Of a stretch of DNA of 32,869 nucleotides, positions 186-32,730 are shown piece after piece (the first letter of the stretch is position 1; each line of letters starts with the position of its first letter). Origin of the DNA: a virus; the IMG/VR virus record IMGVR_UViG_3300029998_000080, positions 1-32,869 of that record. The stretch is one strand, 5' to 3'. Made by a program: the position numbers and the translations under genes. Under the pieces are notes generated by a model. The model made no database searches and was not told the DNA's origin. It saw only the letters and a list, made by a program, of their open reading frames with translations.

Positions 186-1343
186 ATGATAACAAATTTC
201 AAAAAATTTAAAATGTTTGAAAGTTCAGATAGCGCAAAACATGATTTGTCACATGACTTTTTAGATGACGAATATATATCAGCTTATTATGATGAACATT
301 ATTTAGATAATCCAACAGAATCTGATATTGTAGAAATATTAACTTATGATCCAAATTTAATTTCTAGTGTTTTTGATAATAATAAATACATACAAGATAT
401 CATTAACTCAACTGTCAAAGAACTAAATATTGGAGATTTTTATGATTATGAATATAAAGAATATATTAATAATCATTTAACATCAGTTAAAGAAAATAAG
501 ATAATAGAATCTTATTATGATAATAATGATGATGATGATATGATTATAAAATCTGAATATGACGGTATTGTATCAATTATTGAGGAAGATAACATCAAAA
601 AAATTATAATAGCTGAGGATAATTCTAAGGAGGAATATATTATTCCTGATAACTTTACAGTTGTAGTTGAAGATGGAGATGAAATTAGTTCCAACTCTAT
701 TATTGCAAAAAATGATGAATTGAAATATGATTCTGATATGTTAGATGATTTAGATTCAGATCAATTACAAGAGATTATAACAGATGAATCAGAAGAAGGT
801 GAATTTATAGAAGAAACTATTACCAAAAGATATGAATATCTCACTTTCATTGAGGTTATGTCAGAAAAAACAGGAGTAGATAGTTATGTTGAATTGATTG
901 ATAATTTTACACCAAATGGTTTTTATAACAATTATAGTGTATATATAGATGAGAATAAACTTGTTGAATATTATAAAAGAAATACAGATACTGTTTCAAA
1001 ATATGGTTGGGTAGAATCACAAATTGGAAATAGTATAGAAATACAACATTACCTAATGGATAATTCAGGTGACTCCGATAATCTAACGTTGTTATTATTT
1101 GAACTATTTGAAGAAAAAAGAACTCACAATGATGATATTTCAGATGAATATGATTTTCAAAAAAGATATATAGAAGAATATATAAAGGAAAATGGATATG
1201 AAGATGACACAGAAGATGAAAAAGGTGATTTGATAGCTGAATCTTTAAATATCTTAAACTCTAATTTTAGGTTAGATTCACAAATAAAAGAAGAATTCAA
1301 TAAATATATGTTTATTGTAGATTCTGATAAATTTAATATGTAA
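186..1343 (+). CDS. Large acidic protein with a capsid-targeting-like leader, unknown function
   Basis: This 385-residue protein is very rich in Asp and Glu (for example an NNDDDD run near residue 115) and matches no family I recognise. It starts MITNFKKFKMFE and the next gene starts MITNFKIFE. This hydrophobic-Lys-Phe-Glu leader is shared with the operon at 5336-8799 and resembles the leader that sends T4 internal proteins into the prohead. The protein ends VDSDKFNM, a version of the shared KFN tail. The next gene begins 2 bases after the stop, so the two are probably one transcript. By inference it is a packaged or virion-associated protein; an acidic DNA-mimic role is conceivable but unsupported. 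No signal peptide or membrane segment is visible. Confidence 0.8.
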   Translation: MITNFKKFKMFESSDSAKHDLSHDFLDDEYISAYYDEHYLDNPTESDIVEILTYDPNLISSVFDNNKYIQDIINSTVKELNIGDFYDYEYKEYINNHLTSVKENKIIESYYDNNDDDDMIIKSEYDGIVSIIEEDNIKKIIIAEDNSKEEYIIPDNFTVVVEDGDEISSNSIIAKNDELKYDSDMLDDLDSDQLQEIITDESEEGEFIEETITKRYEYLTFIEVMSEKTGVDSYVELIDNFTPNGFYNNYSVYIDENKLVEYYKRNTDTVSKYGWVESQIGNSIEIQHYLMDNSGDSDNLTLLLFELFEEKRTHNDDISDEYDFQKRYIEEYIKENGYEDDTEDEKGDLIAESLNILNSNFRLDSQIKEEFNKYMFIVDSDKFNM

Positions 1344-1345
1344 AC

Positions 1346-1936
1346 ATGATAACAAATTTTAAAATTTTTGAAGGCTCAGATAATAACTCATATTATTATG
1401 ATAAAAACAATTCTCTGATATCAATGAATGATAATGGCGAATATATTAGATTTATTAAACCTGATGTTAATAATTATAGTGAAGTTTTTTGGAAATTTAT
1501 AAAAATTTCTGATTGGAATAAAATTATTAAGAGTAGAAATAATATTGGACAGAAGAATAAAACAGAAAATTTCAAGTTGAAAATAAGAGTATTTAAAAAT
1601 TTTGAATATGATACTATTATGAGTTTTTATGATGAATATGAAAAATTGTATAAAGAACTTTTTAATTATTTTAAACCAATTTGGCTAGATGAGAAATATA
1701 ATATTTTTATGCCATCAGATGACGGTTATTCAGATTTGATAAGCTCAGTTATTGGCAAAGGAAAACTATTTATAAAAAAATGTATAAACGATCATGATGT
1801 ATTTATTAACATGGCTATGACATTTGAATATGTTGAAAATTTTGAATATATATGGCAAACAACTTTAAGTGAGTATGATAAAATTAGAACTGAATATGAC
1901 CCGTTGTATAGAGATTCTAAAAAATTTAATTTATAA
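1346..1936 (+). CDS. Unknown protein with MITNFKIFE leader and KFNL tail
   Basis: This 196-residue protein is rich in Tyr, Phe and Trp and has no motif I recognise. The first nine residues, MITNFKIFE, nearly match those of the preceding gene, after which the two differ completely. That pattern is expected of a sorting leader and not of a paralogous pair. The last residues are RDSKKFNL. The start follows the previous stop by 2 bases and a strong hairpin terminator begins 5 bases after the stop, so this is the last gene of its transcript. The KFNL tail is therefore kept here although there is no downstream start codon for it to serve. Confidence 0.8.
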   Translation: MITNFKIFEGSDNNSYYYDKNNSLISMNDNGEYIRFIKPDVNNYSEVFWKFIKISDWNKIIKSRNNIGQKNKTENFKLKIRVFKNFEYDTIMSFYDEYEKLYKELFNYFKPIWLDEKYNIFMPSDDGYSDLISSVIGKGKLFIKKCINDHDVFINMAMTFEYVENFEYIWQTTLSEYDKIRTEYDPLYRDSKKFNL

Positions 1937-1967: not shown

Positions 1968-3779
1968 TTATGCATTTGCATCTACAATTATCATTCTATT
2001 ATATTGTAATTTTTTAGTATTTGTATCATCAACATACAATTCTTTTGTATAAGGTAAATATACGTAACTTGCTAATGTAAAATCTAATCCTCCAAAATTA
2101 TCACAAACACTATTCATTTGAAAATAATCAGAAATTGTATTTATTCTAAAAGAATTTCCAATACTATTATTTGTAAATCCAATACCTACTATATTTGAAT
2201 CAAATGTACTACCTATGTTATTTGAAGTAAATAAATTGGAAATGTTATTACTAGAGAAAGATGAATTTATACTATTTGACGTGAAATGATCAGCAATTAT
2301 ATTATTTGTAAAAAAATCTCCTATATTATTATATAAAAATTGTATTCCAATAGAATTAATCTGAAACGTATTTCCAATAGAATTACGGGTAAATTCTGTA
2401 TTTATAATATTAATGTTGAAATTGTTTCCAATGACATTAGCATTAAAATTGCTATCGATAACGTTATTATAACAGTCATCACCAAGTGTATTACTAGAAA
2501 AAGATTTACAAATCATATTATTATAGAATCTATCACCTATATTATTTCCAGTGAATTCTGTACTAATAATGTTATTATTACATATTCTACCAATTTTATT
2601 ATATGAGCCAGCAGAACCAATAGAGTTATATTTAAACTCATATCCAATAGAATTAGCCTGAAATGTATCTCCAATAGAATTGTTTTTAAAATTATCATCA
2701 ATTAAATTGTTTTTAAAATTATCACTAATACTATTACCAATAAAATTACGACCAATAGTATTGTTATTAAAATCATTACCAATAGTATTGTTATAGAAAT
2801 TCACATTTATATTATTATCTCTGAAATTGACACCTAATATAACATTATTTGATCCATTTATTATATTTGAGTTTAATTCAGATATATTAATTATATTTGA
2901 ATATGATGTTGAATAATAGTAGTCAAAATCACTCCACATATAACTATCAGTATATCCTGTTGAACATGGCATGGTTATATCACCAAAAATTAGATTATAT
3001 TCAGTACAACTTATATAAGATAGATTATAATACTCAAATAACTGCCAAATACCATTTGAATCATCATTATTATTTGGATTTATATTTGTTGTATTATTTT
3101 TTATGCAAATATAAATTTGATTGGTTTCAGAAAATAATACAACATCTTTGGAATTGTATGTTGTTCCTGAATTCCATATATTTGTAACATTAATTTGCCA
3201 TCTTCTAAATTTAACATTTCTAAAATCAAAAGGAAAATCGTTATTTTGTATTGTATCAATTCTTCTGTAAATATAGCCAGTTGTGCATCCTGGTACAACT
3301 GTTTGATTATTATTAAAATTATAATAAATTACATCTTGTGAATATAAATAAGAATGAGCTTCTGGTTTCAATTTATCTAATCCAATTGCGGTAACTAATA
3401 ATGGTTCAGTTATACCTGAATTTAAATCACTAGTATATGGAATTATATGTACTGTACTATAATCAGTAATTAAATATTGTGTACCAATAGTTAATGATAA
3501 AGTATTTATCAAATCTAATAATTCACTATATGTAACATTAGTTACTGATGCTCCTCCTGAAGATCCATTTAAACCTGAAGTTCCAGAAGTACCTGTAGTT
3601 CCGTTTATTCCTGATGTGCCATTAGTTCCGTTTATTCCTGATGTTCCAGAAGTACCTGTATATCCTGTAAAAGAATAAACATCATTAAAATTGGAATTTA
3701 TTTTAATGAATGATTCTCTTAAATTATCTCCAGTTCCATCGTTTGGAGATGAGCCAATATTAATTAATTGTTTGCTCAT
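1968..3779 (-). CDS. Tail-fibre-like structural protein with nonapeptide beta-helix
   Basis: This 603-residue protein has a mosaic typical of phage fibres. Residues 8-36 carry the INIGSSPNDGTGD...INSNFNDVY head found on many virion structural proteins of T4-like phages. Residues about 40-76 are a collagen-like GTSGTSG/NGT run. Residues about 83-315 form a globular region including TIGTQYLITDY and a GTTYNSKDVV stretch like a small carbohydrate-binding module. Residues 319-561 are 27 consecutive nine-residue repeats of the form FxxNxIxxx, expected to fold as a right-handed beta-helix. A 42-residue C-terminal cap follows. Likely role: fibre or baseplate appendage that touches the host surface. 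It is transcribed alone or with the small genes upstream on the same strand. The exact fibre type cannot be told from sequence alone. Confidence 0.85.
   Translation of the reverse strand: MSKQLINIGSSPNDGTGDNLRESFIKINSNFNDVYSFTGYTGTSGTSGINGTNGTSGINGTTGTSGTSGLNGSSGGASVTNVTYSELLDLINTLSLTIGTQYLITDYSTVHIIPYTSDLNSGITEPLLVTAIGLDKLKPEAHSYLYSQDVIYYNFNNNQTVVPGCTTGYIYRRIDTIQNNDFPFDFRNVKFRRWQINVTNIWNSGTTYNSKDVVLFSETNQIYICIKNNTTNINPNNNDDSNGIWQLFEYYNLSYISCTEYNLIFGDITMPCSTGYTDSYMWSDFDYYYSTSYSNIINISELNSNIINGSNNVILGVNFRDNNINVNFYNNTIGNDFNNNTIGRNFIGNSISDNFKNNLIDDNFKNNSIGDTFQANSIGYEFKYNSIGSAGSYNKIGRICNNNIISTEFTGNNIGDRFYNNMICKSFSSNTLGDDCYNNVIDSNFNANVIGNNFNINIINTEFTRNSIGNTFQINSIGIQFLYNNIGDFFTNNIIADHFTSNSINSSFSSNNISNLFTSNNIGSTFDSNIVGIGFTNNSIGNSFRINTISDYFQMNSVCDNFGGLDFTLASYVYLPYTKELYVDDTNTKKLQYNRMIIVDANA
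2097..2825 (-). repeat. 27 tandem nine-residue (27-bp) repeats inside the fibre gene
   Basis: Read on the minus strand, the coding sequence runs through 27 units of FxxNxIxxx with no insertion or deletion, for example FKNNSIGDT, FQANSIGYE and FTSNNIGST. A Cys or Gly replaces Phe in three units. The centre Asn and Ile are the most constant. DNA identity between units is modest, so the array is old or has been diversified. Confidence 0.85.
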
Positions 3780-4658: not shown

Positions 4659-4853
4659 ATGAAATGTAAAGTTATAAATTCAAATAAAAATACATTAGAA
4701 GAGAAAATAAATGATTGGTTGAGTACAGAAACAGTTGAAATATTTAATTTTGTACAAACTCAACATAACGAATATATAACTATTACATTTTTTTATTATG
4801 ATAAATCTGAATTGAGAAAAATTAAATTGAAAAAATTAGAAAGCAATAAATAA
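4659..4853 (+). CDS. Small protein resembling the Cse60/DUF2758 type, with RKxKL tail
   Basis: The 64-residue protein has the pattern KCKVINSNKNTLEEKINDWL followed by VEIFNFVQTQ and ITITFFYY. This resembles small phage and Bacillus proteins of the Cse60 type (LEKEVNEWL, then a beta-hairpin ending in a Tyr-rich strand), whose function is unknown. The resemblance is by eye. The C-terminus, SELRKIKLKKLESNK, is a plus-strand example of the RKxKL tail otherwise found on minus-strand proteins. The next start codon follows the stop directly. Confidence 0.7.
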   Translation: MKCKVINSNKNTLEEKINDWLSTETVEIFNFVQTQHNEYITITFFYYDKSELRKIKLKKLESNK

Positions 4854-5335: not shown

Positions 5336-5605
5336 TTGAAATATATAAAAAAATTTGAAAATAAAAAAGATGAACCAAAAGTAGGTGATTATGTAATTTT
5401 TGACTGTCCTATGTCATATGATGTAAAAATGAATAATCTATACAATTATACAGTTCATAAAATTATAAATATATATTGGGATTCATATGAAACAAATCTA
5501 GGACTTAATATAAATAAATCTTATCTATTAGATTTTTCAGATAACAAAAGAAAATTACAACAATATGTTAAACTAAAAAAAAATACAGATAAATTTAATA
5601 TATGA
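5336..5605 (+). CDS. Small SH3-like (KVGDYV) protein with leader and KFNI tail, TTG start
   Basis: The start is TTG at 5336. I choose it because it gives MKYIKKFE, the leader shared by the operon; the first in-frame ATG would remove both leader and domain. After the leader comes PKVGDYVIFDCP, the opening of a small SH3/KOW-like barrel that recurs in this window at 8254, 24161, 25983, 26227, 30169-31026 and inside the protein at 31609. The C-terminus is KNTDKFNI and its stop overlaps the next start by 4 bases. The protein has 89 residues and no enzymatic motif. By inference it is packaged in the virion. Confidence 0.75.
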   Translation: MKYIKKFENKKDEPKVGDYVIFDCPMSYDVKMNNLYNYTVHKIINIYWDSYETNLGLNINKSYLLDFSDNKRKLQQYVKLKKNTDKFNI

Positions 5606-6219
5606 AACACATAAAAATGTTTGAAACATTTACAAATAAAATTACAATAGGAATAGATATTGATGGTACGATATGTGATTTCGTTAATGCATACAATACA
5701 CTATATAAAAGATACTTTCCTGATAAAGAAATAAATCAGGATCAAAATTGGCATTGGTATGAAACAATGGACTATAATGGTGAATCATCAAAAACATGGT
5801 TTAATAATAAAAAATCTGAAGTTTTTGATATTGCTCAACCATATAAAGGTGCTGTTGATACTATAAACAATATATATGATTTTATAAAAACTCATGGTTT
5901 CAAATTAAACATAGTAACTAAACAACCTACTGAAGAATCTAAAGAATCTGCTAAGAAATGGTTAGACCATTATGGATTTAAATACGATGACATCATTTTT
6001 GCTAATTCATCAATGGATAAATGGAAATATGCTGATATATTAATAGATGATTCTCAAAAAGTTATTGGAAGTAAACCATTAAGTAAAGTATCAATTAAAA
6101 TTGAACACCCTCATAATACAGAAATTGAAGGAGATTTTAATATTCTTGAAATTAATAATCTAACAATTGATATAATTCAGAAAGCTATATCTAAACTTAA
6201 AAATAAAACTACTGTATGA
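5602..6219 (+). CDS. HAD-family 5'(3')-deoxyribonucleotidase-like protein with capsid-targeting-like leader
   Basis: This 205-residue protein matches the NT5C-type nucleotidase pattern. It has ITIGIDIDGTICDFVNAYN with nucleophile and acid Asp19 and Asp21, then NIVTKQP (motif II), a helical cap with KKWLDHYGF, KWKYADILIDDS (motif IV, two Asp) and a C-terminal strand. The family removes phosphate from nucleoside monophosphates. In phages it is usually linked to nucleotide-pool control. The protein starts MKHIKMFETF, the operon leader, while the catalytic domain starts only at about residue 13. Unlike its neighbours it ends KNKTTV and lacks the KFN tail. Both junctions are ATGA overlaps. Domain assignment is firm; packaging in the capsid is an inference. 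Confidence 0.85.
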   Translation: MKHIKMFETFTNKITIGIDIDGTICDFVNAYNTLYKRYFPDKEINQDQNWHWYETMDYNGESSKTWFNNKKSEVFDIAQPYKGAVDTINNIYDFIKTHGFKLNIVTKQPTEESKESAKKWLDHYGFKYDDIIFANSSMDKWKYADILIDDSQKVIGSKPLSKVSIKIEHPHNTEIEGDFNILEINNLTIDIIQKAISKLKNKTTV

Positions 6220-6683
6220 AATTTATAAAAAAATTTGAAGATAGATATTCTGATATCTTTTTTAATAGTGATGATAGTGTATTTGAAGCTTGTAGAAGAG
6301 GAGATTTAGAAGTTGTACAAGAATATATAGAAGTTGAAAAAGGTGATGTGAATAATATAGATAAATATGGATATACACTATTAATACTAGCAGCAGATAA
6401 CAATAGGATAGATGTGGTGAAGTATTTAATAGGAAAAGGAGCTGATATAAACTATCAAGATATCTATAATAGAACAGCATTAAATTATGCTACATTAAGA
6501 GAAAACAATGATATAGTAAGATTTTTAATAGAAGCTAATGCTAATTGGAACTTAAAAGATAATTTGGGTAATGATTTTTTGACGTATTTACTACCAATTA
6601 ATAAGATTAATATAATTGAAGAATATCCAGAACAATATCAAAAATATCTAACTATAAAAAAATCCGAAAAATTTAATTTATGA
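6216..6683 (+). CDS. Ankyrin-repeat protein with capsid-targeting-like leader
   Basis: The 155-residue protein has about four ankyrin repeats. Residues 22-40 (SVFEACRRGDLEVVQEYIE), 50-80 (YGYTLLILAA...VVKYLIGKGADIN), 84-113 (RTALNYATLRENNDIVRFLI) and a partial unit near 116-127 follow the TPLhxAxxxGhxxhVxxLLxxGAdhN pattern. Ankyrin repeats bind other proteins, so a host target is likely. The leader is MKFIKKFE followed directly by DRYSD, and the protein ends KKSEKFNL. An ankyrin protein carried into the cell could be an inhibitor or adaptor acting at injection. That role is inferred from leader and fold only. Confidence 0.85.
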   Translation: MKFIKKFEDRYSDIFFNSDDSVFEACRRGDLEVVQEYIEVEKGDVNNIDKYGYTLLILAADNNRIDVVKYLIGKGADINYQDIYNRTALNYATLRENNDIVRFLIEANANWNLKDNLGNDFLTYLLPINKINIIEEYPEQYQKYLTIKKSEKFNL

Positions 6684-6709
6684 AAAAATATAATCAATTC
6701 ATTAATGAA
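6669..6709 (+). repeat. 41-bp gene-junction repeat, copy 1
   Basis: The repeat covers the codons for KFN(I/L), the ATGA stop-start overlap and MKKYNQFINE of the next gene. Copies are at 6669-6709, 7097-7137, 7459-7499 and 7872-7912 and differ at only a few bases. Unique sequence of about 360-420 bases separates them, so each gene is a cassette between identical ends. Confidence 0.9.
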
Positions 6710-7111
6710 AATAGAGCATACGGTAAAGATAATAAAACCAATGATTTTAATTTTAATTTTTTTATATTATTAGAAAATGCGACAGAAGAAAACCAAAGTA
6801 AAGCATTTGAAGAATTTAATAAATATGTAAATTTAGAATCACATAATATAAAAAATTTATTAATAACTAAATCAAATATTGATGATTTTAAAAATACAGA
6901 AATTGAATGGCTTTGGTATATTAATGTATATGAGAGTTGGGGTAATGTACGAATACCAAGAGATACAATTGATTTCTTTAAAATGAGATCTACTGATCTT
7001 CGTAGTAGTGATAATTTAATTATTTCATTAGATGAATTTATTAAAATTGGATTGAAAGGAGTTGAAACTCTTTATAAAGTAAAAAAAGATGCAAATAAAT
7101 TTAATATATGA
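6680..7111 (+). CDS. Unknown protein with MKKYNQFINE leader and KFNI tail (1 of 4)
   Basis: After the 10-residue leader MKKYNQFINE come a polar linker and then NFNFFILLENAT, a helical part (KAFEEFNKYV) and EWLWYINVYESWGNVRIP. The general order (short strand, helix, strand with Trp-Gly) resembles the proteins at 7108 and 7883, so the three may be distant paralogs. I do not recognise the family. The leader fits a T4-type capsid-targeting sequence with I-N-E before the expected cut. The protein ends KDANKFNI. Confidence 0.8.
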   Translation: MKKYNQFINENRAYGKDNKTNDFNFNFFILLENATEENQSKAFEEFNKYVNLESHNIKNLLITKSNIDDFKNTEIEWLWYINVYESWGNVRIPRDTIDFFKMRSTDLRSSDNLIISLDEFIKIGLKGVETLYKVKKDANKFNI

Positions 7112-7137
7112 AAAAATATAACCAATTCATTAATGAA
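7097..7137 (+). repeat. 41-bp gene-junction repeat, copy 2
   Basis: Same element as at 6669-6709, with AAC in place of AAT for the Asn of the leader. The change is silent. Confidence 0.9.
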
Positions 7138-7473
7138 AAAAATTCTGATGTATTTAAAGTTTCAATAGATATTAAAAATATCACAGATGACGATTTATAT
7201 AAGCTCAATGAAATATTCAAAAAATATTTTGACATTTATGATATTATAAGTCAATATGCGTCATATAGTAATAAACCTCATACATTGGTTTTAGATATAA
7301 GTAACAATAAAATAACTACTTGGTGTATTACAACACCTGATTGGGGTTATGATGAAGATTATATTATAAATATTATTAAACCTGAAGAATTGTTAAATGC
7401 TAGATCAAATGGAATTAAAGATATTGTAGAATATCTTGAAGCAAGAAATAATACAAATAAATTTAATATATGA
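7108..7473 (+). CDS. Unknown protein with MKKYNQFINE leader and KFNI tail (2 of 4)
   Basis: The 121-residue protein has the body FKVSIDIKNITDDDLYKLNE, a second strand HTLVLDISNN, and WCITTPDWGYDEDYI. The gene at 7883 shows the same sequence of elements (FRFAINIKGITDEQTDQVID, SIIVDVSNYPNN, VSTRGWGNNIDYM), so the two are paralogs that have diverged over most of their length while their ends stayed identical. A small alpha/beta fold is likely, function unknown. The tail is NNTNKFNI. Confidence 0.8.
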   Translation: MKKYNQFINEKNSDVFKVSIDIKNITDDDLYKLNEIFKKYFDIYDIISQYASYSNKPHTLVLDISNNKITTWCITTPDWGYDEDYIINIIKPEELLNARSNGIKDIVEYLEARNNTNKFNI

Positions 7474-7499
7474 AAAAATATAATCAATTCATTAATGAA
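7459..7499 (+). repeat. 41-bp gene-junction repeat, copy 3
   Basis: Same element as at 6669-6709. From the start codon on it is identical to copy 1 through the ten leader codons. Confidence 0.9.
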
Positions 7500-7886
7500 T
7501 CAAAAGATATATGGCAAAGAGAATCAACAAAAGATGAAACATATGGTCCTATTTTTTACATAAAAAGACCAGGATTTAAGACTGGAGTGTATGATGGAGA
7601 TATAGTTAAATTAGATAAAGAATATATTGAAAAATTAGACTCTGTATTATATAATAGACATAATGAAAAAAAGACGACTGACAAATTTACTGATAATGAT
7701 TATAGTAAAGAATATGTTCTAGTTGATTATGTATGGTATTATGGGTATGTATTAAGAAATTCACTATCTGATATAGAAGATAATGATTTCTTAGGATGGG
7801 TACCAACAGGATATGTTAGACACCTAACAGACGAAGAAATGAAAGATTATCAATATAAAATACATGCAAAAAAATTTAACATATGA
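7470..7886 (+). CDS. Unknown protein with MKKYNQFINE leader and KFNI tail (3 of 4)
   Basis: The 138-residue protein continues after the leader with SKDIWQRESTKDETYGP, then FKTGVYDGDIVKLDKEYIEKL, an SH3-like opening in which GDIVKLD matches the VGDIV pattern of the other barrels in the window. Later come a Tyr/Trp-rich part (YVLVDYVWYYGYVLRN) and LGWVPTGYVRHLTDEE. It ends IHAKKFNI. It is not obviously related to its neighbours at 7108 and 7883, although its first ten residues are the same, which supports a separable leader. Confidence 0.8.
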   Translation: MKKYNQFINESKDIWQRESTKDETYGPIFYIKRPGFKTGVYDGDIVKLDKEYIEKLDSVLYNRHNEKKTTDKFTDNDYSKEYVLVDYVWYYGYVLRNSLSDIEDNDFLGWVPTGYVRHLTDEEMKDYQYKIHAKKFNI

Positions 7887-7912
7887 AAAAATATAATCAA
7901 TTCATTAATGAA
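7872..7912 (+). repeat. 41-bp gene-junction repeat, copy 4
   Basis: Same element as at 6669-6709, with AAC for the tail Asn in place of AAT. It is the last copy; the next gene uses the MIHIKKFE form of the leader. Confidence 0.9.
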
Positions 7913-8257
7913 AGTTCTAAAACTAAATTCAGGTTTGCAATAAATATTAAAGGCATAACAGATGAACAAACAGATCAAGTTATTGATAAACTCAAAAAAT
8001 ATAATCTAAGTCAAAGTGATGAACACACTATAAGAAATGATGTAAAAATACAAGGTTTTTATTCAATAATTGTTGATGTGTCAAATTATCCAAATAATAC
8101 ACATATATTTATAATTGCTGTTTCCACACGAGGATGGGGTAATAATATTGATTATATGCAAAATATGCTATCAATAGATAATTTTTTAGTTATACCATTT
8201 GATGATATATATGATAATATTCAATATAGAATATACGCAAAAAAATTTAACATATGA
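7883..8257 (+). CDS. Unknown protein with MKKYNQFINE leader and KFNI tail (4 of 4)
   Basis: This is a 124-residue diverged paralog of the gene at 7108, with FRFAINIKGITDEQ at residues about 17-30, a helix, SIIVDVSNY and the Trp-Gly segment VSTRGWGNNIDYM. It ends IYAKKFNI. The pair with one unrelated gene between them suggests duplication and reshuffling through the 41-bp junction repeats. No catalytic motif is visible. Confidence 0.8.
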   Translation: MKKYNQFINESSKTKFRFAINIKGITDEQTDQVIDKLKKYNLSQSDEHTIRNDVKIQGFYSIIVDVSNYPNNTHIFIIAVSTRGWGNNIDYMQNMLSIDNFLVIPFDDIYDNIQYRIYAKKFNI

Positions 8258-8799
8258 TACATATTAAAAAATTCGAATTCTACGATACCAAAGAATTTAC
8301 ACGTGATTCAGAACCAGAAATAAATGATTACGTTAGACTTGATGAAGATTTCTATGAATCTAAAATACCTGAATATTTTATACCTAGAGAAAATGACACA
8401 GACTATAAATATAGAATAGGTAAAATAATTGGATATAATGAACATACAGAACACTATAACGTTAAATTTGATAAATATGAATTGTGGAATAATAATTTTT
8501 TAGTTAAACGTGAACAAATAAAAAGCTATTCTAAAAAAATTGAAGATCTGGAAAATCTGCCATCTGTTGGAGATTATTGTCTGCTTGGTTGGGATAATAC
8601 GGAATTGTGTAAAGTAATAAAGAAAGAAAGAGTTGAAAATTTTAGATGGGCTTCAATTGATTATAAGGTTAAAAAAATGAATCCTGGTCCTCACGATGGC
8701 ACAGGAATTGTTCAAACTGATGATGATTCAATGAAATATTGGTCAAGCGATATAAATGATATGAAATCAATTATAGCATCAAAGAAATTTAATGTGTAG
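8254..8799 (+). CDS. Two-domain SH3-like protein with MIHIKKFE leader and KFNV tail
   Basis: The 181-residue protein has the leader MIHIKKFEFYD, then EINDYVRLDEDF...YKYRIGKIIGYNEHTEHYNVKF, which is one small barrel. SVGDYCLLGWDNTELCKVIKKERV starts a second one. It ends IIASKKFNV. As the last gene of the operon it has no downstream start codon, yet the tail is kept with a different codon set (AAT GTG TAG). The stop codon lies inside the 3' end of the convergent tRNA gene. I see no separate terminator. Function unknown; likely packaged, by the leader argument. Confidence 0.8.
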   Translation: MIHIKKFEFYDTKEFTRDSEPEINDYVRLDEDFYESKIPEYFIPRENDTDYKYRIGKIIGYNEHTEHYNVKFDKYELWNNNFLVKREQIKSYSKKIEDLENLPSVGDYCLLGWDNTELCKVIKKERVENFRWASIDYKVKKMNPGPHDGTGIVQTDDDSMKYWSSDINDMKSIIASKKFNV

Positions 8800-8869
8800 C
8801 TTGAGAGGGATTCGAACCCTCACTGAAACGCATTTGAAACGCCGTCCTCTGCCGTTGGGATACCAAGCC
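8797..8869 (-). tRNA. tRNA-like gene, anticodon CAA (Leu?), short variable loop
   Basis: The minus strand folds as a 73-base cloverleaf: acceptor GGCTTGG/TCAAGCT (two G-U), D arm TCC/GGA with GG in the loop, and T arm GAGGG-TTCGAAT-CCCTC (perfect). The anticodon stem GGCGT/GCGTT is weak (three G-U pairs) around loop TTCAAAT, giving anticodon CAA. A Leu tRNA should have a long variable arm, but here it is only five bases. The anticodon arm also contains a direct repeat GCGTTTCA. The tRNA may be altered or decaying, or the identity may be wrong. No CCA is encoded. The 3' end overlaps the TAG of the gene at 8254 by 3 bases. Confidence 0.65.
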
Positions 8870-8870
8870 A

Positions 8871-9968
8871 TTATTTTAACCACTTCTTAACTGCTTTACC
8901 AGTTACTCCATAAACTCTACCAACAGCTTCTAAACTTGTATCAGATATCATTAATCTTAACTCATCTTTTGTTGGTCTGTTCTTTACTTTTCTTTCAGAT
9001 AATCTGTAGCAGTCATAACATTGTTTAGAATTGTGTTTAATTTCTTTTCCACATGCACAATAATTTTTTATTAAATTATTGTTTATTTTAATTTCTTTTT
9101 TACCTGATTTTAATTTTTTTATTCTATCATTTCTAATTATATTATAATAATATTCATCAACTTCACTTTTGATATTTAAATTTTTAACACCAAGAAACTC
9201 ATACATTTTTTTGAAATCTACTCTTCTATTTACGTTTATTCTATAACAGTTATCTTTACTTATTTGTATAGTATAATGAATATTTATAATATCAAGTGAG
9301 TTACAATAAATATCTACTATATCTTTAGACATATTAGAAAAATTATAATAATAACCGAAATATTTTTTTCCTTCTTTTTTAATTATTGTATTTTTATATA
9401 AGCAACCATCTGAATGAAACAATCCACGTATTATGTTTTTGTGATTTATATTTTTTATTTGAAAATCTTCTAGTATTATTTTTCTTTTGTGCTTTACTCC
9501 TTTTCCTATTTGAGGAAATAAATATTTTAAAGAGTTGGAATATACTGAAACAATAAACATATTATATTTAGTTTTATGAATATTTATTTTATTAAATGGA
9601 AATAATATTTTTAAATTATTTTCACATTCAGTTACTATATTATAATACTTACTATCTAAAAATATTCGAATTTGATATGATGATCTTTTTGTTTTTATTA
9701 TATGACCATCTCCTAAATATAATCCTAATATATAATTATATTCTAATTTTTTATCAGATAAATAATTATTAATATCACAATTATTTTTTAATTTTTTTTG
9801 ATTTTCTAATTTATTATATTGATTGAATTTTTCATTGTTATTTAACCAATATCTAATATTACTTCTTGGTATATTATATTTTTTACTTAATTCTGACTGT
9901 TTTGATCCATTATTATATTCTTCTATTATTTTTATGATTTCACTAACTTCATATACTCTATATGTCAT
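8871..9968 (-). CDS. LAGLIDADG homing endonuclease inserted in the tRNA cluster
   Basis: I start at ATG 9968 (MTYRVYEVSEI), because a longer frame would run into the neighbouring tRNA. This gives 365 residues. Residues 8-43 are a helix-turn-helix (GSKQSELSKKYNIPRSNIRY). LGLYLGDGHI (81-90) and IRGLFHSDGCL (180-190) are the two LAGLIDADG helices with their acidic residues, so the protein acts as a monomer that cuts a long, nearly unique DNA site. CACGKE...CYDC (304-320) is a zinc-ribbon-like Cys4, and residues 343-364 form a second helix-turn-helix (SLEAVGRVYGVTGKAVKKW). The stop lies one base from a tRNA 5' end. It is a selfish mobile gene, probably free-standing; I see no intron borders. Confidence 0.9.
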   Translation of the reverse strand: MTYRVYEVSEIIKIIEEYNNGSKQSELSKKYNIPRSNIRYWLNNNEKFNQYNKLENQKKLKNNCDINNYLSDKKLEYNYILGLYLGDGHIIKTKRSSYQIRIFLDSKYYNIVTECENNLKILFPFNKINIHKTKYNMFIVSVYSNSLKYLFPQIGKGVKHKRKIILEDFQIKNINHKNIIRGLFHSDGCLYKNTIIKKEGKKYFGYYYNFSNMSKDIVDIYCNSLDIINIHYTIQISKDNCYRINVNRRVDFKKMYEFLGVKNLNIKSEVDEYYYNIIRNDRIKKLKSGKKEIKINNNLIKNYCACGKEIKHNSKQCYDCYRLSERKVKNRPTKDELRLMISDTSLEAVGRVYGVTGKAVKKWLK

Positions 9969-9977
9969 ATTATTTTT

Positions 9978-9996
9978 TATTTTATATATAAAAAAT
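9978..9996 (-). promoter_or_regulatory. TATATATAA-type promoter-like box upstream of the endonuclease
   Basis: On the minus strand TTTTTATATATAAAATAAA lies 10-28 bases before ATG 9968, matching the boxes before 4245, 4535 and 5227. It supports ATG 9968 as the true start and suggests that the endonuclease is expressed separately from the tRNA genes. Confidence 0.45.
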
Positions 9997-10072
9997 TCTA
10001 TGACAAAAAGAATAAAAATTGAACATATTTTTAAATAAATTGTATCATAATGATTAATCATTGAATATATTG

Positions 10073-10160
10073 TACTCCTGGTCGGACTTGAACCGACACG
10101 CCTACTATTGTTCAGCACATGTTTCTAAAACATGGATGTCTACCATTCCATCACAGGAGC
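10073..10160 (-). tRNA. tRNA-Leu (anticodon UAG)
   Basis: The minus-strand cloverleaf has acceptor GCTCCTG/CAGGAGT, anticodon stem CATGT/ACATG around TTTAGAA (anticodon TAG, reading CUA), a long type II variable arm typical of Leu, and T arm GTCGG-TTCAAGT-CCGAC. It is 88 bases long with discriminator A and no encoded CCA. It is transcribed with its two neighbours. Confidence 0.92.
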
Positions 10161-10169
10161 GATTTTTTG

Positions 10170-10256
10170 TACCGATGACGGGACTTGAACCCGTATAAGC
10201 ATATAGCTTGCAAAATTTTAAGTTTTGAATGTCTACCAAGATTCCATCACATCGGC
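10170..10256 (-). tRNA. tRNA-Leu (anticodon UAA)
   Basis: Acceptor GCCGATG/CATCGGT, anticodon stem CAAAA/TTTTG around CTTAAAA (anticodon TAA, reading UUA), a long variable arm, and T arm ACGGG-TTCAAGT-CCCGT. UUA is expected to be the main leucine codon in so AT-rich a genome. Discriminator A, no CCA. Confidence 0.92.
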
Positions 10257-10264
10257 ATATTTTG

Positions 10265-10344
10265 TACTCCTAGAGGTATTCGAAACCTCATCCAAATGGA
10301 CATCATCTTAAGTGATGCGTGTATACCAATTCCACCATAGGAGC
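10265..10344 (-). tRNA. tRNA-Leu (anticodon UAA), second isoacceptor
   Basis: Acceptor GCTCCTA/TAGGAGT, anticodon stem CATCA/TGATG around CTTAAGA (anticodon TAA), a variable arm with TCCA/TGGA pairing, and T arm GAGGT-TTCGAAT-ACCTC. It has the same anticodon as the gene at 10170 but a different body and T loop, so it is not a recent duplicate of it. First tRNA of the transcript. Confidence 0.9.
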
Positions 10345-11092: not shown

Positions 11093-11449
11093 TTAATTAT
11101 TTGGGCCAACTTCTTCAATTCCAATTGTTTTCAAATAACTTAAGCATTCGAATTCAGTTTTAAATTTTATTGGTTTATAAGAGTTATTATAATCTCCTTT
11201 TATTTTTCTTGTTTTTTTGAAATTTTTATAGAAATCATCATTATCAACTTTGTATATAACATCATGATCATCAAAATATGGAAATTCATAACTAAAATAA
11301 TTAGAATTAAATAATGTGACATATATTTGTTTTTGTCTTGTTTCTACGTTACAAAGTAATCTTATATTTTCATATAATTTTTCGTGCTGTTGTTCGTGTA
11401 CTGTTTTTATTTTGCTAGATGATATTACATCTTTGGTATAATCAATCAT
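11093..11449 (-). CDS. Unknown 118-residue protein
   Basis: It begins MIDYTKDVISSSKIKTVHEQ. Its start overlaps the previous stop by 4 bases (ATGA), which implies coupled translation. The central part is aromatic (NSNYFSYEFPYFDDHDVIY), followed by a basic segment and a C-terminal helix (FECLSYLKTIGIEEV). I do not recognise it. Confidence 0.7.
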   Translation of the reverse strand: MIDYTKDVISSSKIKTVHEQQHEKLYENIRLLCNVETRQKQIYVTLFNSNYFSYEFPYFDDHDVIYKVDNDDFYKNFKKTRKIKGDYNNSYKPIKFKTEFECLSYLKTIGIEEVGPNN

Positions 11450-15833: not shown

Positions 15834-15880
15834 ATTTAATTGTTGAATAACGAATATAAGGAATATATTTCACATAAAAA

Positions 15881-15906
15881 AATAGTTAGATAAAAATCTA
15901 ACTATT
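15881..15906. terminator. Terminator between two minus-strand transcripts
   Basis: AATAGTTAGA and TCTAACTATT form a 10-base stem around TAAAAA, with A7 before and T7 after, so it can act in both directions. It follows the gene at 15939 on the minus strand. Confidence 0.85.
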
Positions 15907-15910
15907 TTTT

Positions 15911-22143: not shown

Positions 22144-22944
22144 TTATATTTTAACTTTTACCTGTTCTGTGTTCCTATTAATTGCATTAGATATGCTATA
22201 AAATTCAGGAAAGTCTAATGATTTTTCCATACTAACAAATGAATCTATCGTGCCAGGAGAAATATCTTTAACGTAATTTGAAAATTTATTAGTAGCATCC
22301 TGTATAGCTAATTGTCTTGTTTTCATTGTAGGTGTAAAATAAAACTCATCTTTAAATGCTTGAGACATTAATCCAATAAAATAACAGCAATCTAAATAAT
22401 TTTCTATTTGATCAGTTGATTCAAATTTAAATAATTGATTATATTTTTGAATATTTGTCAACATTATATTTTTATCATCAGAATCTAGTACATTATCAAT
22501 TATATATCTAACTGAAGAACGAATTGTAGTTGGTTCATGTCCTCTTGTTGTAATAATCGCAAATAATCTTCCTTCTTTTAAAGTTGATAGTAATGATTTC
22601 CATGATGGTCCGAAGTCTTTATTTTTTATTGCTTTTTTGATATCATCAAGTAGTGAATTATCTCCTCTTGCTCCGCTGTCTACAAATTCTGAAAAAGTAT
22701 ATTTAGTATCAGCTTTCCATTCATTATTATCTATATAATTATCTGGATATTTTTCACGTATTTTAGAAAAATCTTGTATTGATATGTCTTTATTTATCCA
22801 TTTGTCATTTTCAAAATGTTGAAAGTGTAAAGGAGTATTCATGATAAGCAAATTATCATCAATATCAAATATAGAATATTGTGAATTACCTACACTTTGT
22901 TGCTCTAAAATAAATGAATTCCAATCTTTGACTATTTTGCTCAT
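22144..22944 (-). CDS. HAD-like phosphatase-type protein with capsid-targeting-like leader
   Basis: The 266-residue protein has a HAD core. IFDIDDNLLIMNTPLH holds motif I with Asp27 and Asp29, and FAIITTRGHEP holds the motif II Thr. A large insertion lies between. HAD proteins of this pattern are common in T4-like phages, with substrate unknown. The residue after the second Asp of motif I is Asp-Asn and not Gly-Thr, so activity is not certain. The opening MSKIVKDWNSFILEQQ contains WNSFILE, which fits the (aromatic)xxFIxE core of MKKYNQFINE and of the T4 leader, with I-L-E before the expected cut. The start lies on the stop of the gene at 22944-23270. Confidence 0.8.
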   Translation of the reverse strand: MSKIVKDWNSFILEQQSVGNSQYSIFDIDDNLLIMNTPLHFQHFENDKWINKDISIQDFSKIREKYPDNYIDNNEWKADTKYTFSEFVDSGARGDNSLLDDIKKAIKNKDFGPSWKSLLSTLKEGRLFAIITTRGHEPTTIRSSVRYIIDNVLDSDDKNIMLTNIQKYNQLFKFESTDQIENYLDCCYFIGLMSQAFKDEFYFTPTMKTRQLAIQDATNKFSNYVKDISPGTIDSFVSMEKSLDFPEFYSISNAINRNTEQVKVKI

Positions 22945-23270
22945 TATAAATTAAATTTTTTTGTAGATTTATACAATTCTGTATCTTTCATATATTCAAC
23001 TATATCATTATATTCTTCGTCTGTTATAGATATTGTACCTTTTTGATAATTTTTCAAGGCAAAAGATATTTTATAACCGCCTGGTTTAAGTGAACTTTTA
23101 TATATGCTGTCTGATTTTATAATAAAATCAGGTGAATTTTGAAATCCGTGATTTTTTCTAAATTCATCATTTGTATTTACATAATCATCAACAACTCTCA
23201 TCATATTATCATAATATCGATCTAATTGAATTTTCTTTGAATAATATTCGCCAAAACTATATACTGTCAT
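22944..23270 (-). CDS. Unknown protein with KFNL tail (minus strand)
   Basis: The 108-residue protein begins MTVYSFGEYYSKKIQLDRYY and ends YKSTKKFNL, the same tail as the plus-strand packaged-type proteins and the only minus-strand example. Its stop overlaps the start of the leader-bearing HAD gene. The middle (GYKISFALKNYQKGTISITD) is beta-rich. Its opening YSFGE is only weakly like the leader. By association it may belong to the packaged set. Confidence 0.7.
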   Translation of the reverse strand: MTVYSFGEYYSKKIQLDRYYDNMMRVVDDYVNTNDEFRKNHGFQNSPDFIIKSDSIYKSSLKPGGYKISFALKNYQKGTISITDEEYNDIVEYMKDTELYKSTKKFNL

Positions 23271-29615: not shown

Positions 29616-30194
29616 TTATTTTTTAGGATTATATAATTCTTTTAAATCTTTAGGAATAGGTATCAAATGCCAAAAGCCGTCATCATCAATTGTGAAACTT
29701 TCTGGTTTCATGGAATAATAGCCCCATGTACAGAATCCATTACATTCATTATTTTCACAAGTATTTGTAAACTTATTCTCAATACCCCAATCTTGTCCAC
29801 ATAGAACGCAAATTAATTTTTTTTCTGGCTCATCAACAAAAATATCATCTGATGATTTGACTATATTTTTTAATTTATCTCTTCTCTCATATTTTATTGA
29901 ATACATAAATCTATTTATCGTGCTCCAAATTTTTTTATTTCCGTCATTTAAAATTTTAATTTTGCCTTTTTTATGATCTAATATTTCATATGATTTACCA
30001 ATTGTTAAATCACAATGACTAGATGAATTATAATATCTAATATCTGAGCAGTAGTTTTCGTTATCAAAACATATGTATGTTTTTCCTATTACGCAATATT
30101 TATCAGATAATATGGATCTTTTTAATATTTTTCTTTTATCAAATTGATTCTTTTCTAAAAAATCAGGATTATTTAACCACTGCTGAAGTATCAT
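29616..30194 (-). CDS. SH3-like plus zinc-ribbon protein
   Basis: The 192-residue protein has a degenerate SH3-like barrel (YCVIGKTYICFDNENYCSD then DLTIGKSYEILDHKKGKIK) followed by YERRDKLKNIVKSSDD, the RKxKL element found as the C-terminal tail elsewhere but here internal. A zinc ribbon comes next: CVLC (129-132), then CENNEC (146-151) and a further Cys155. The combination suggests a nucleic-acid-binding role. It overlaps the gene at 30169 by 26 bases, the longest overlap in the array, which fits a zinc-ribbon extension added after the standard tail. Confidence 0.75.
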   Translation of the reverse strand: MILQQWLNNPDFLEKNQFDKRKILKRSILSDKYCVIGKTYICFDNENYCSDIRYYNSSSHCDLTIGKSYEILDHKKGKIKILNDGNKKIWSTINRFMYSIKYERRDKLKNIVKSSDDIFVDEPEKKLICVLCGQDWGIENKFTNTCENNECNGFCTWGYYSMKPESFTIDDDGFWHLIPIPKDLKELYNPKK

Positions 30195-30414
30195 TCAATT
30201 GAATTAATTTTTGTTTTCTTGTATATTGTTTATCTAATTCTGAATATTCATCTAAATATTTAGATTCAATAGATTTTTTCCTTACTGTATGAACTGATTT
30301 ATTTGCTGGTATATCATGACTATATACATAATTATCATTTAAAATTTTTAATATTACTATTTTAAATACCATACCTTTTGTACCAACAACAACAGCTCCA
30401 ACTTTATATCTCAT
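30169..30414 (-). CDS. SH3-like tandem paralog 4 (MRYKVGAVV), RKQKL tail
   Basis: The 81-residue protein begins MRYKVGAVVVGTKGMVFKIV and ends YSELDKQYTRKQKLIQLNDT followed by SAVVK. The barrel and tail match the three genes upstream. It is the last of four in tandem, each overlapping its neighbour by 11 bases, and has the longest C-terminus. Loss of Asp in VGDIV (VGAVV here) marks it as the most diverged copy. Confidence 0.8.
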   Translation of the reverse strand: MRYKVGAVVVGTKGMVFKIVILKILNDNYVYSHDIPANKSVHTVRKKSIESKYLDEYSELDKQYTRKQKLIQLNDTSAVVK

Positions 30415-30607
30415 TTAATTTTATTAATTTTTGTTTTCTCATTGATTTAATATCCAATTCAGAATTATAGTCTAAATAATCGAAATGTACACGTTTAGAC
30501 AAATTCAGACTTTTATTATCTACATAATAATAATATCCATCCCAAATTTTTAATATTACTAATTTACTATTCTTTCCGTCTACAATATCACCAACTTTAT
30601 ATTTCAT
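30404..30607 (-). CDS. SH3-like tandem paralog 3 (MKYKVGDIV), RKQKL tail
   Basis: The 67-residue protein is MKYKVGDIVDGKNSKLVILK, then WDGYYYYVDNKSL and a tail SELDIKSMRKQKLIKLNEI. The tail codons AAT GAA ATA TAA overlap the start ATG AAA TAT of the next gene in another frame, so the end of one protein and the beginning of the next are encoded by the same 11 bases. Confidence 0.85.
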   Translation of the reverse strand: MKYKVGDIVDGKNSKLVILKIWDGYYYYVDNKSLNLSKRVHFDYLDYNSELDIKSMRKQKLIKLNEI

Positions 30608-30812
30608 ATAATTGTTTCAATTTTTCTTTTCTAGTAGATTTGATATCTAATTTTGATTCATTGTCTATTATTAATGCGTTGTAGTTGTGTACAAATTTTG
30701 ATATTTCATTTAAATAATTTATTACACAATATTTATATTCGTCATATTCATAAGATAAAATCATTATTCTAAAATAATCACCTATAACAATATCTCCAGC
30801 TTTATATTTCAT
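30597..30812 (-). CDS. SH3-like tandem paralog 2 (MKYKAGDIV), RKEKL tail
   Basis: The 71-residue protein begins MKYKAGDIVIGDYFRIMILS, has a Tyr-rich strand (YEYDEYKYCVINYLNE) and ends ESKLDIKSTRKEKLKQLYEI. It shares first residues and tail with the copies on either side but little in between, the same pattern of conserved ends and free middle seen in the plus-strand operon. Confidence 0.85.
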   Translation of the reverse strand: MKYKAGDIVIGDYFRIMILSYEYDEYKYCVINYLNEISKFVHNYNALIIDNESKLDIKSTRKEKLKQLYEI

Positions 30813-31026
30813 GTAATTTATACAATTTTTGCTTTCTCATAAATTTAATATTCAATTCTGTTTGATTTTCTATATAATCATAAGTAATGATATGTGTATC
30901 ATCATTATCAAGAAATCTAAATTTATACTGAGGTTTTTTGTGAGTATAAATCATAATATCTAATATTATTGATTCACTATCATACATTTGTTTAAAATAA
31001 ATAATGTCTCCTACTTTATATTTCAT
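30802..31026 (-). CDS. SH3-like tandem paralog 1 (MKYKVGDII), RKQKL tail
   Basis: The 74-residue protein begins MKYKVGDIIYFKQMYDSESI, contains KKPQYKFRFLDNDDTHIITY and ends TELNIKFMRKQKLYKLHEI. It is the first of the four paralogs in transcription order. Its start sits inside the last codons of the gene at 31016 with an 11-base overlap. Confidence 0.85.
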   Translation of the reverse strand: MKYKVGDIIYFKQMYDSESIILDIMIYTHKKPQYKFRFLDNDDTHIITYDYIENQTELNIKFMRKQKLYKLHEI

Positions 31027-31608: not shown

Positions 31609-32730
31609 ATGAAATATTTAAAAACTTTTGAAAAAATGATGTCAAATTTTACGTTATATCATGGCTCACCATACTTATTTTCTGAGTTTAAAAATAAAAT
31701 TACATTTTTTTCAGATAATTCTCAATTTGCGTATGATTATGCTAGTGAGAAATCTAGTGATAATGAATTAGATCAATCACCAGTCATATATACATGCAAA
31801 TTAAATGGTAAGATATTTGATGCTAACATAGATGAACATTTAAAAAAATTAGATGATATATTACCAGATAAAATAACATGCTATATGAGTAATTTTTGCT
31901 TTCCTGCTGATTATACAAAACAGGATATTTTAAAATTATTGAAAGGTGATGATACAATTGAGCCAATTGATTATATATCAAATGCTAAAGTTGGAGATAT
32001 AGTAGATGACCCATATTATAAAATTGATAAATTAATTGTAGTTGATGTTGATTCTGAAAATGTTTATACTATTGACAAAAAGAATTTTAATTATCATTTA
32101 AGTGGAGCTGACTCAATAAGATATGGTGATAATCATTTTGGATATGAATATCGTAAATACTTTGATGATTTTAGAAATTATATTAAAGAAATTTTTAAAG
32201 GAAAGGAAATTTATGGAATATCGGATCATTTGACTGGTATATTTCTGGACAAAAAATATCACAAAACATATTTAAAATTTGAAATTCCTGATGAACAGTA
32301 TATAAAAGGAGTTGAATTATATGATATAGCAAAAGAAAATATGATGAAAGATTATGCGTCTAAACTCAAAAAATCATGGAACAAAAAACCAAAAAAAATA
32401 AAATTGGATGACACATGGAGATATTATGAAAATGATTCTGTTTCTAGCGCAATTGAAAAATTAGGATTTGCTGGTTATGTTGCAAAAGAAAAAAAGCATA
32501 ATACATATGCCATATTCAATCCAAAAGAAACTATTACAATCGAATCAATTTATTATGAAGTTGGTGAGTTTAAAAACTTAGAAGAAATAGGAGATTACAA
32601 CAAAATGATAAACAAACTTTATAAGCATTATGATTCATCATTTGGTTATGAGAGATATAATGTATATAAATATATGAAAAAAGGATTTACATTAGAAGAA
32701 ATAATATCTGAAATTGATAATAAAAAATAA
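31609..32730 (+). CDS. ADP-ribosyltransferase-like protein with capsid-targeting-like leader
   Basis: The 373-residue protein starts MKYLKTFEKM, the shared leader. Next comes TLYHGSPYLFSEFK (15-28) and ITFFSDNSQFAYDYA (31-45), the H-G-S and FFS/T-x-(5)-AxxYA pattern of polyvalent phage and toxin ADP-ribosyltransferases, which bind NAD through the YHGS strand. An SH3-like insert (NAKVGDIVDDPYYKIDKLIV) begins near residue 125. The C-terminal part has LGFAGYVAKEKKHNTYAIFN (about 285-304), matching the GYDGI...YVVFNP end of the same fold. Such enzymes move ADP-ribose from NAD to a target protein. T4 packages one (Alt) that acts on host RNA polymerase at injection, and I infer a similar role. The KFN tail is absent. 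The catalytic Glu is not identified. Confidence 0.75.
   Translation: MKYLKTFEKMMSNFTLYHGSPYLFSEFKNKITFFSDNSQFAYDYASEKSSDNELDQSPVIYTCKLNGKIFDANIDEHLKKLDDILPDKITCYMSNFCFPADYTKQDILKLLKGDDTIEPIDYISNAKVGDIVDDPYYKIDKLIVVDVDSENVYTIDKKNFNYHLSGADSIRYGDNHFGYEYRKYFDDFRNYIKEIFKGKEIYGISDHLTGIFLDKKYHKTYLKFEIPDEQYIKGVELYDIAKENMMKDYASKLKKSWNKKPKKIKLDDTWRYYENDSVSSAIEKLGFAGYVAKEKKHNTYAIFNPKETITIESIYYEVGEFKNLEEIGDYNKMINKLYKHYDSSFGYERYNVYKYMKKGFTLEEIISEIDNKK

What the first reader, a model, noticed from the sequence alone, without database searches (positions are those of the whole stretch)
5336..8799. An operon of unrelated proteins sharing a capsid-targeting-like leader
Eight consecutive plus-strand proteins begin with MKKYNQFINE (four times) or MKxIKxFE/MIHIKKFE and then diverge completely into a HAD nucleotidase, ankyrin repeats, SH3-like barrels and unknown folds. 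T4 internal proteins use MKTYQEFIAE as a leader that sends them into the prohead, cut after Glu by the prohead protease (consensus I/L-x-E). MKKYNQFINE agrees at M, K, Y, F, I and E with identical spacing. I infer a set of packaged proteins injected with the DNA. The KFE forms fit the cut site less well than INE does.
Basis: partly seen in the sequence, partly recalled or inferred. Interest (0 to 1): 0.93.

Follow-up and report, generated by a model that had tools for sequence, protein, structure and literature searches.

The report
Head-targeting leaders on huge-phage cargo proteins
A family of giant viruses of bacteria (probably of Bacteroidetes) puts the same short N-terminal tag on dozens of unrelated proteins, and the tag matches repeats in the virus's own head scaffold and the cut site of its coat protein, so these proteins are probably loaded into the virus head and injected into the next host.

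Summary
The leader is real. Four proteins start MKKYNQFINE and four start with MKxIKxFE-type forms. The window is a fragment of a huge phage in the Mahaphage clade. In its relatives the leaders occur on 52-53 proteins per complete ~640 kb genome, against about 1 expected, in 110 unrelated sequence clusters. Conservation stops one or two residues after the Glu.

Three independent tests point to head assembly. (1) The clade has a gp23-type coat protein next to a protease carrying T4 gp21's His/Ser motifs. The predicted coat-protein cut is INE|N in 80/80 relatives and MNE|N in the window's own lineage. (2) That protease is fused to a scaffold with 8-13 repeats 'YSEYIAE', the leader motif; no other protein in three sequences counted has three or more copies. 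(3) Small proteins made of a leader plus the coat protein's mature N-arm align the leader's Glu with that site. One 84%-identical ortholog pair swaps INE for FE leaders.

Corrections: three of the four MKKYNQFINE bodies are paralogs, and the FE class lacks the I-x-E cut site. Missed: most of these proteins end in KFN[ILMV], and leaderless proteins carry a different tail (RKxKLxxL).

Virion content, cleavage and injection remain untested. This is a new, much expanded variant of T4 internal-protein packaging.

The parts
5336..5605 (+). Leader class B (MKYIKKFE, TTG start) + 'VGDY' small protein + tail DKFNI
   Evidence: ortholog G010 139932 starts with ATG and reads MKHLKTFE
5602..6219 (+). Leader class B (MKHIKMFE) + HAD/NT5C-type nucleotidase; Pfam domain starts at residue 13, just after the leader; no KFN tail
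   Evidence: PF06941 E 3.4e-12
6216..6683 (+). Leader class B (MKFIKKFE) + ankyrin repeats (from about residue 24) + tail EKFNL
   Evidence: PF13637 E 1.8e-19
6680..7111 (+). Leader class A MKKYNQFINE (6680-6709) + paralog family member 1 + tail NKFNI
   Evidence: AlphaFold pLDDT 73, residues 1-16 below 50; no significant PDB match
7108..7473 (+). Leader class A MKKYNQFINE + paralog family member 2 + tail NKFNI
7470..7886 (+). Leader class A MKKYNQFINE + body unrelated to the paralog family + tail KKFNI
   Evidence: ortholog in G010 (82% identity) with leader MKKYDQFINE
7883..8257 (+). Leader class A MKKYNQFINE + paralog family member 3 + tail KKFNI; weak match to PHROG 2667 'internal head protein' starting at residue 1
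   Evidence: E 5.8e-5; orthologs in G003 4.9e-4 and 2.9e-3
8254..8799 (+). Leader class B (MIHIKKFE) + unknown body + tail KKFNV; last gene, no downstream partner, stop TAG
   Evidence: next to tRNA-Leu 8796-8869
186..1343 (+). Leader-like N-terminus MITNFKKFKMFE + tail DKFNM
1346..1936 (+). Leader-like N-terminus MITNFKIFE + tail KKFNL; no downstream gene on this strand, tail kept
22144..22944 (-). Class-A-like leader MSKIVKDWNSFILE; ortholog of W01 113187 (MDILRFDQFIRE)
22944..23270 (-). Protein with N-terminus MTVYSFGEYYSKK and tail KKFNL
31609..32730 (+). Leader class B (MKYLKTFE), 373-aa protein of unknown family, no KFN tail
30169..31026 (-). Four tandem leaderless 'MKYKVGDI' proteins with the other C-terminal tail (RKxKLxxLN): contrast group
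   Evidence: 13 of 60 window ORFs carry this tail

Best explanation
The leaders are prohead-targeting sequences. Newly made cargo proteins dock, through an amphipathic [I/L]-K-x-[Y/F]-x-x-F stretch, onto the inner scaffold of the growing prohead. That scaffold is itself a tandem array of the same motif (YSEYIAE). In the INE class, the gp21-like protease fused to the scaffold then cuts after the Glu, as it is predicted to cut the scaffold repeats (IAE|N) and the coat protein (INE|N, MNE|N). This frees the cargo inside the head, to be delivered with the DNA. The FE class uses the same docking core; whether and where it is cut is open, and cutting after the FE Glu is plausible. Shown by sequence: the shared motif, its modularity, its protein-level selection, the protease, scaffold and coat motifs, and the alignment of leader with coat propeptide. 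Inferred: docking, cleavage, presence in virions and injection.
For: Leader enrichment over shuffles: W01 25 class A vs 0.74 expected and 28 class B vs 0.29; W02 21 vs 0.88 and 31 vs 0.29; G010 6 and 24; G003 6 and 13; also around 80 coat loci, 13 vs 1.2 and 22 vs 0.5. 163 leader proteins fall into 110 unrelated clusters; conservation is strong up to Glu and one or two residues beyond, then at background. Leader codons follow genome usage, so selection is on the protein. Pfam domains begin after the leader: HAD at 13, SET 34, NUDIX 36, methyltransferase 41. Gp23-type coat protein E 4.5e-28 beside a gp21-like protease E 1.8e-5 that keeps T4's GExxHP and VSSR motifs (H85 and S140 by position in T4 gp21; 80/80). 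Coat site INE|N 80/80; MNE|N in the window lineage, tied to it by G016, 83-90% DNA identity to and collinear with G010. The scaffold is the only protein with 3 or more internal leader motifs in W01 (11 of 55), W02 (11 of 61) and G016 (13 of 17). Leader + coat-arm proteins, E 1e-13 to 1e-5 to coat residues about 32-90. Leader swap at 83.5% identity. PHROG internal head protein match. T4 CTS determinants 4, 7, 8, 10 match (PMC9026906).
Against: There is no virion proteomics for any member. The window holds neither coat protein nor protease; these come from sister contigs. The coat cleavage site is placed by similarity, not measured; an automatic alignment with T4 gp23 did not align the two sites. 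FE-class leaders lack I/L-x-E at the Glu in most cases (position -3 relative to the cut is T, K or L). Some leader proteins match functions not obviously needed at entry (endolysin, primase, polymerase exonuclease). Leaders are gained or lost in 19 of 39 W01/W02 ortholog pairs that have one, so targeting is not essential for those functions.
Confidence: 0.75

Rival explanations
1. The leader docks proteins on the prohead scaffold, but they are assembly helpers or structural inner proteins that stay in or leave the prohead and are not injected effectors.
For: The scaffold-motif match and coat-arm proteins speak for head association, not for injection. Some leader genes lie near head genes.
Against: Bodies are mostly enzymes typical of host interaction: RNA ligase, PPK2, NUDIX, SET, methyltransferases, 2H phosphoesterase/Acb1-like. 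There are over 50 per genome in unrelated families.
Confidence: 0.14
2. The leader is a localisation signal for another compartment (replication zone, membrane, nucleoid), and its likeness to scaffold and coat is coincidence or shared ancestry.
For: It is N-terminal, modular and found on many enzymes. No virion data exist.
Against: The scaffold is the only protein with 3 or more internal copies, and the coat-arm proteins align the leader with the coat propeptide.
Confidence: 0.08
3. The shared ends are a by-product of recent tandem duplication or recombination at conserved gene junctions (the DNA at KFNI-TGA/ATG-MKKYNQFINE is a 50-98 nt repeat), without a role as a signal.
For: Near-identical junction DNA in the window. 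Three of the four bodies are paralogs.
Against: Leaders elsewhere use varied codons and sit on unrelated bodies, with conservation at the amino-acid level. The sister phage G003 keeps the peptide with different codons. Leader and tail occur apart from each other and at operon ends.
Confidence: 0.02
4. The start-of-gene sequence is a translation-initiation element read by us as a peptide.
For: Junctions are AT-rich with overlapping stop/start in a host group expected to lack strong Shine-Dalgarno sites (general knowledge).
Against: Synonymous codon use in the leaders is like the genome average. Leaders also occur on genes that do not overlap an upstream gene.
Confidence: 0.01

Closest known systems
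T4 internal proteins IPI, IPII, IPIII with capsid targeting sequence MKTYQEFIAE
   Same: N-terminal 10-residue leader; Y4, F7, I8, E10 and spacing identical; unrelated bodies; gp21-type protease and gp23-type coat protein in the clade; variable cassette-like gene clusters.
   Different: Fifty or more proteins per genome instead of three; a second leader class without I-x-E; scaffold made of tandem leader-like repeats, which T4 gp22 (269 aa) does not show (no T4 protein has 3 or more copies); KFN tails in the window lineage.
T4 Alt
   Same: T4 Alt is a packaged, injected enzyme processed by gp21, including at its C-terminus (PMC9026906).
   Different: No Alt homolog was found here. The KFN tail is not an E-x cut site.
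phiKZ/SPN3US inner-body (ejection) proteins
   Same: Huge phages that load and eject many proteins, with proteolytic maturation after Glu (PMC9026906, PMC5694885).
   Different: Cut motif S/A-x-E and, as far as known to me, no shared short leader on dozens of unrelated proteins.
P1 DarB capsid targeting
   Same: N-terminal signal sufficient to send a reporter into the capsid (PMC9024508).
   Different: No sequence relation tested or expected; different phage type.

Membership tests
T4-type capsid targeting sequence / internal head proteins | N-terminal leader with aromatic residue 4, F7 (targeting), I/L8 and E10 (processing) | tested here: met
   MKKYNQFINE matches all four positions; mapping of determinants from PMC9026906. 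The FE class meets the targeting core only.
T4-type capsid targeting sequence / internal head proteins | Unrelated mature bodies behind one leader | tested here: met
   110 clusters among 163 proteins; within the window only partly (three paralogs)
T4-type capsid targeting sequence / internal head proteins | Phage encodes a gp21-like protease and a gp23-like coat protein with a matching cut site | tested here: met
   in relatives and sister contigs; the window itself is a fragment without them
T4-type capsid targeting sequence / internal head proteins | Profile similarity to known internal head proteins | tested here: inconclusive
   PHROG 2667 E 5.8e-5 for 7883 and weaker for two orthologs; the match starts at the leader and the other members do not match
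T4-type capsid targeting sequence / internal head proteins | Protein found in virions, leader removed, injected with DNA | not testable with these tools
   needs virion mass spectrometry and infection experiments
gp21 (S77) prohead protease | Catalytic His and Ser of T4 gp21 (H85, S140) | tested here: met
   GExDHP and VSSRA in 80/80 relatives, aligned by eye to T4 GELNHP and VSSRG; the Pfam score is below the curated cut-off
Mahaphage clade | Relationship to the 634-735 kb genomes | tested here: met
   Conserved proteins about 42-60% identical to W01/W02; coat protein about 51% in sister contigs; clade and Bacteroidetes host prediction from PMC7162821. No tree was built.

The most novel reading that the evidence does not exclude
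The window's lineage uses a two-ended address code on about a fifth of its proteins. Leader plus KFN[ILMV] tail marks proteins for the prohead. A different tail (RKxKLxxLN) marks leaderless proteins for another fate, perhaps exclusion from the head, another site, or timed breakdown by the phage's own ClpP. Cargo is recruited because its leader mimics one repeat of the scaffold.
Probability: 0.35. Interest if true: 0.88.

Novelty: new variant of a known kind. Interest (0 to 1): 0.82.

Why it matters
If right, the largest known phages deliver dozens of ready-made proteins with their DNA, among them candidate repair and counter-defence enzymes, and their cargo can be listed from sequence alone. 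It gives a simple mechanism for cargo choice (cargo mimics a scaffold repeat), a direct test by mass spectrometry of virions, and a tag that might load proteins into phage heads. The C-terminal tails are a separate open question that the same data would address.

Tried and rejected
DNA similarity of the cluster to phage records: no match. A protein search with 7883 in phages: no match. AlphaFold plus Foldseek for the paralog family: moderate model, no significant PDB match. AlphaFold for the VGDY family: low confidence, so an SH3 barrel is neither confirmed nor excluded. Idea that the KFN tail copies the scaffold C-terminus (W01 ERFKNI): rejected for the window lineage, whose scaffold ends FDKLSS/FDKLNS. 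Idea that the tail is only a coupling signal for the next gene: rejected as the sole cause, because it persists at operon ends with changed codons. Idea that 31609-32730 is an ADP-ribosyltransferase like Alt: no Pfam, PHROG or significant PDB support. A first coat-protein search found only W01-like phages; an AT-rich codon pattern was needed to reach the window's lineage.
Full report
WHAT IS THERE. The eight genes at 5336-8799 are real, co-directional and mostly overlap by ATGA. Four start with the exact decapeptide MKKYNQFINE, four with an MKxIKxFE-type leader. The same tail closes 186-1343, 1346-1936 and 22944-23270, and leader-type starts occur at 186, 1346, 22144 and 31609. The bodies are not all unrelated: 6680, 7108 and 7883 are divergent paralogs. 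HAD, ankyrin, 7470 and the rest are different.

WHERE IT COMES FROM. The window is a 32.9 kb IMG/VR record. Its NAD-dependent ligase is 42% identical to LR756502 and LR745206, 642 and 635 kb complete phages (called W01 and W02 here). PMC7162821 places all genomes over 634 kb in the Mahaphage clade, predicted to infect Bacteroidetes. Closer sister contigs G010 (235 kb) and G003 (125 kb) carry the same cluster with changed leaders (MKKYKEFINE, MKKYKQFINE, MKKYDQFINE, MKSFDQYINE).

THE LEADER IS GENOME-WIDE. With strict patterns for the two classes and shuffled N-termini as control, W01 has 25 + 28 leader proteins (expected 0.7 + 0.3) among 922 ORFs, W02 21 + 31, G010 6 + 24, G003 6 + 13, the window 5 + 4, and T4 2 + 0 (T4's two are the known MKTYQEFIAE proteins). 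The 163 leader proteins of the five huge-phage sequences form 110 clusters by mature sequence. One representative per cluster gives, for class A, [I/L]-K-[K/N]-[Y/F]-N-[Q/E]-F-I-N-E-[S/E], and for class B, K-[Y/H]-[L/I]-K-x-[F/Y]-E-[S/N]-[F/Y]. Positions not used for selection are also conserved (I/L/V in 32 of 33 at E-9 in class A; F, Y or L in 46 of 72 at E+2 in class B), and conservation falls to background after that. Placed on [I/L]-K, the two classes share [I/L]-K-x-[Y/F]-x-x-[F/Y]. T4's targeting determinants are residues 4 and 7 and its processing determinants 8 and 10 (PMC9026906). Class A has all four; class B has the targeting-like core with Glu directly after the first aromatic. 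Codon choice within leaders follows the genome, so the peptide is selected, not the DNA. Pfam domains start after the leader.

TEST 1, PROTEASE AND COAT. W01 and W02 carry a gp23-type coat protein (PF07068, E 4.5e-28 and 6.8e-26). Immediately upstream is a 700-aa protein with a gp21/S77-like protease domain (E 1.8e-5, below Pfam's cut-off) holding T4's GExxHP and VSSR motifs, identified by position as H85 and S140 of T4 gp21; 80 of 80 relatives keep both. The coat N-terminus reads ...EYAEFHSINE|NAYVNASN... with INE in 80 of 80, where T4 gp23 has ...FLTE|AEIGG...GYNATN (my placement; one search's automatic alignment did not put these together). For the window's own lineage an AT-rich codon pattern recovered the head locus. 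Contig G016 is 83-90% identical to and collinear with G010 and carries leaders, KFN tails, the scaffold and the start of the coat gene. Sister contigs G013 (L307) and G012 (L296) give the full coat protein, with EMHSMNE|NVAYSTL.

TEST 2, SCAFFOLD. The same protein continues into a scaffold of tandem 14-residue repeats, YSEYIAENLDKNIA, found in W01, W02, W03, W04 and the window's lineage. Its core Y-x-x-Y-[I/L]-x-E has the spacing of MKTYQEFIAE and MKKYNQFINE. Counted over whole ORF sets without N-termini, only this protein has three or more copies: 11 of 55 in W01, 11 of 61 in W02, 13 of 17 in G016. So the leader looks like one repeat of the scaffold.

TEST 3, COAT-ARM PROTEINS AND LEADER SWAPS. 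G003 802, G010 62681, W01 80294, W02 93266, W01 542908 and W02 554784 are small basic proteins that carry the mature N-arm of the coat protein (GMGxVxxAQP...GSGD) behind a leader or an LxLE site. BLAST aligns them to coat residues of about 32-90 (best E 1e-13), and the leader's Glu falls on the coat's INE Glu. W02 363366 (MIIKKYIKFINEE|FDHL) and W01 385173 (MKYLRTYE|GFDHL) are 83.5% identical orthologs that differ in leader class, which suggests the two classes do the same job and places the class-B boundary at its Glu.

CARGO. Leader proteins in W01/W02 include RNA ligase (E 8e-21), PPK2 (6e-77), NUDIX, SET, methyltransferases, HNH nuclease, GNAT, 2H phosphoesterases (2'-5' RNA ligase E 2e-11; weaker to anti-CBASS Acb1, 1.6e-6), and also an endolysin-like and a primase-like member. 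Most have no known domain.

THE TAILS. KFN[ILMV] ends 10 window ORFs (0.12 expected), 43 in G010 (1.0) and 21 in G003 (0.6), and is at background in T4 and close to it in W01 and W02. Over five sequences of the lineage, 84 of 98 tail proteins have a leader-like start against 142 of 784 others (p 5e-41). The tail is kept with F/Y and I/L/M/V exchanges, varied codons and no downstream gene, so it acts as protein. A second tail, RKxKLxxLN, ends 13 window, 43 G010 and 28 G003 ORFs, none or one elsewhere, and avoids leader proteins (1 of 96 vs 86 of 786, p 5e-4). Its role is unknown. It may partly serve gene overlap, as its codons are strongly biased (AGA AAA).

VERDICT. The leader is best read as a T4-type capsid-targeting sequence, used on a much larger scale and mimicking the scaffold. 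Docking, cleavage, packaging and injection are inferred. The INE class is the firmer part, the FE class weaker. The literature held here described T4 and P1 targeting sequences, and the searches made found nothing on this leader set in huge phages; subscription papers and preprints were not covered.

Noticed in passing
window 4659-4853, 11446-11691, 15339-16457, 19395-20105, 24161-24424, 25983-26499, 28956-29219, 30169-31026: Thirteen leaderless ORFs share a C-terminal motif RKxKLxxL(N); 43 of 376 ORFs in G010 and 28 of 212 in G003 have it, W01/W02/T4 have one or none.
   Followed up: partly
G003 802-1185, G010 62681-63073, W01 80294-80539 and 542908-543423, W02 93266-93520 and 554784-555284: Small basic proteins reuse the mature N-arm of the major capsid protein behind a cleavable-looking leader.
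   Followed up: partly
L091-L170, L296, L307: Prohead protease and scaffold are one fused protein across these huge phages; separate genes in T4.
   Followed up: partly
window 8796-8869, 10072-10160, 10169-10256, 10264-10344: Four tRNA-Leu genes on the minus strand (anticodons CAA, TAG, TAA, TAA), split by an ORF that looks like a homing endonuclease (8871-10118).
   Followed up: no
window 1968-3779: Tail-fibre-like protein with collagen-like GTSG repeats and long N-rich repeats.
   Followed up: no
G012:1-127 and G003:1-127: Two contigs from different samples share an exact 127-base end, as assembly-graph neighbours or branches do.
   Followed up: no
window 16459-17214 and 28274-28951: Phage-encoded ClpP-like and Sir2-like proteins, both with relatives in W01/W02 (names from sequence motifs; identities of 44-53% to W01/W02).
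   Followed up: no
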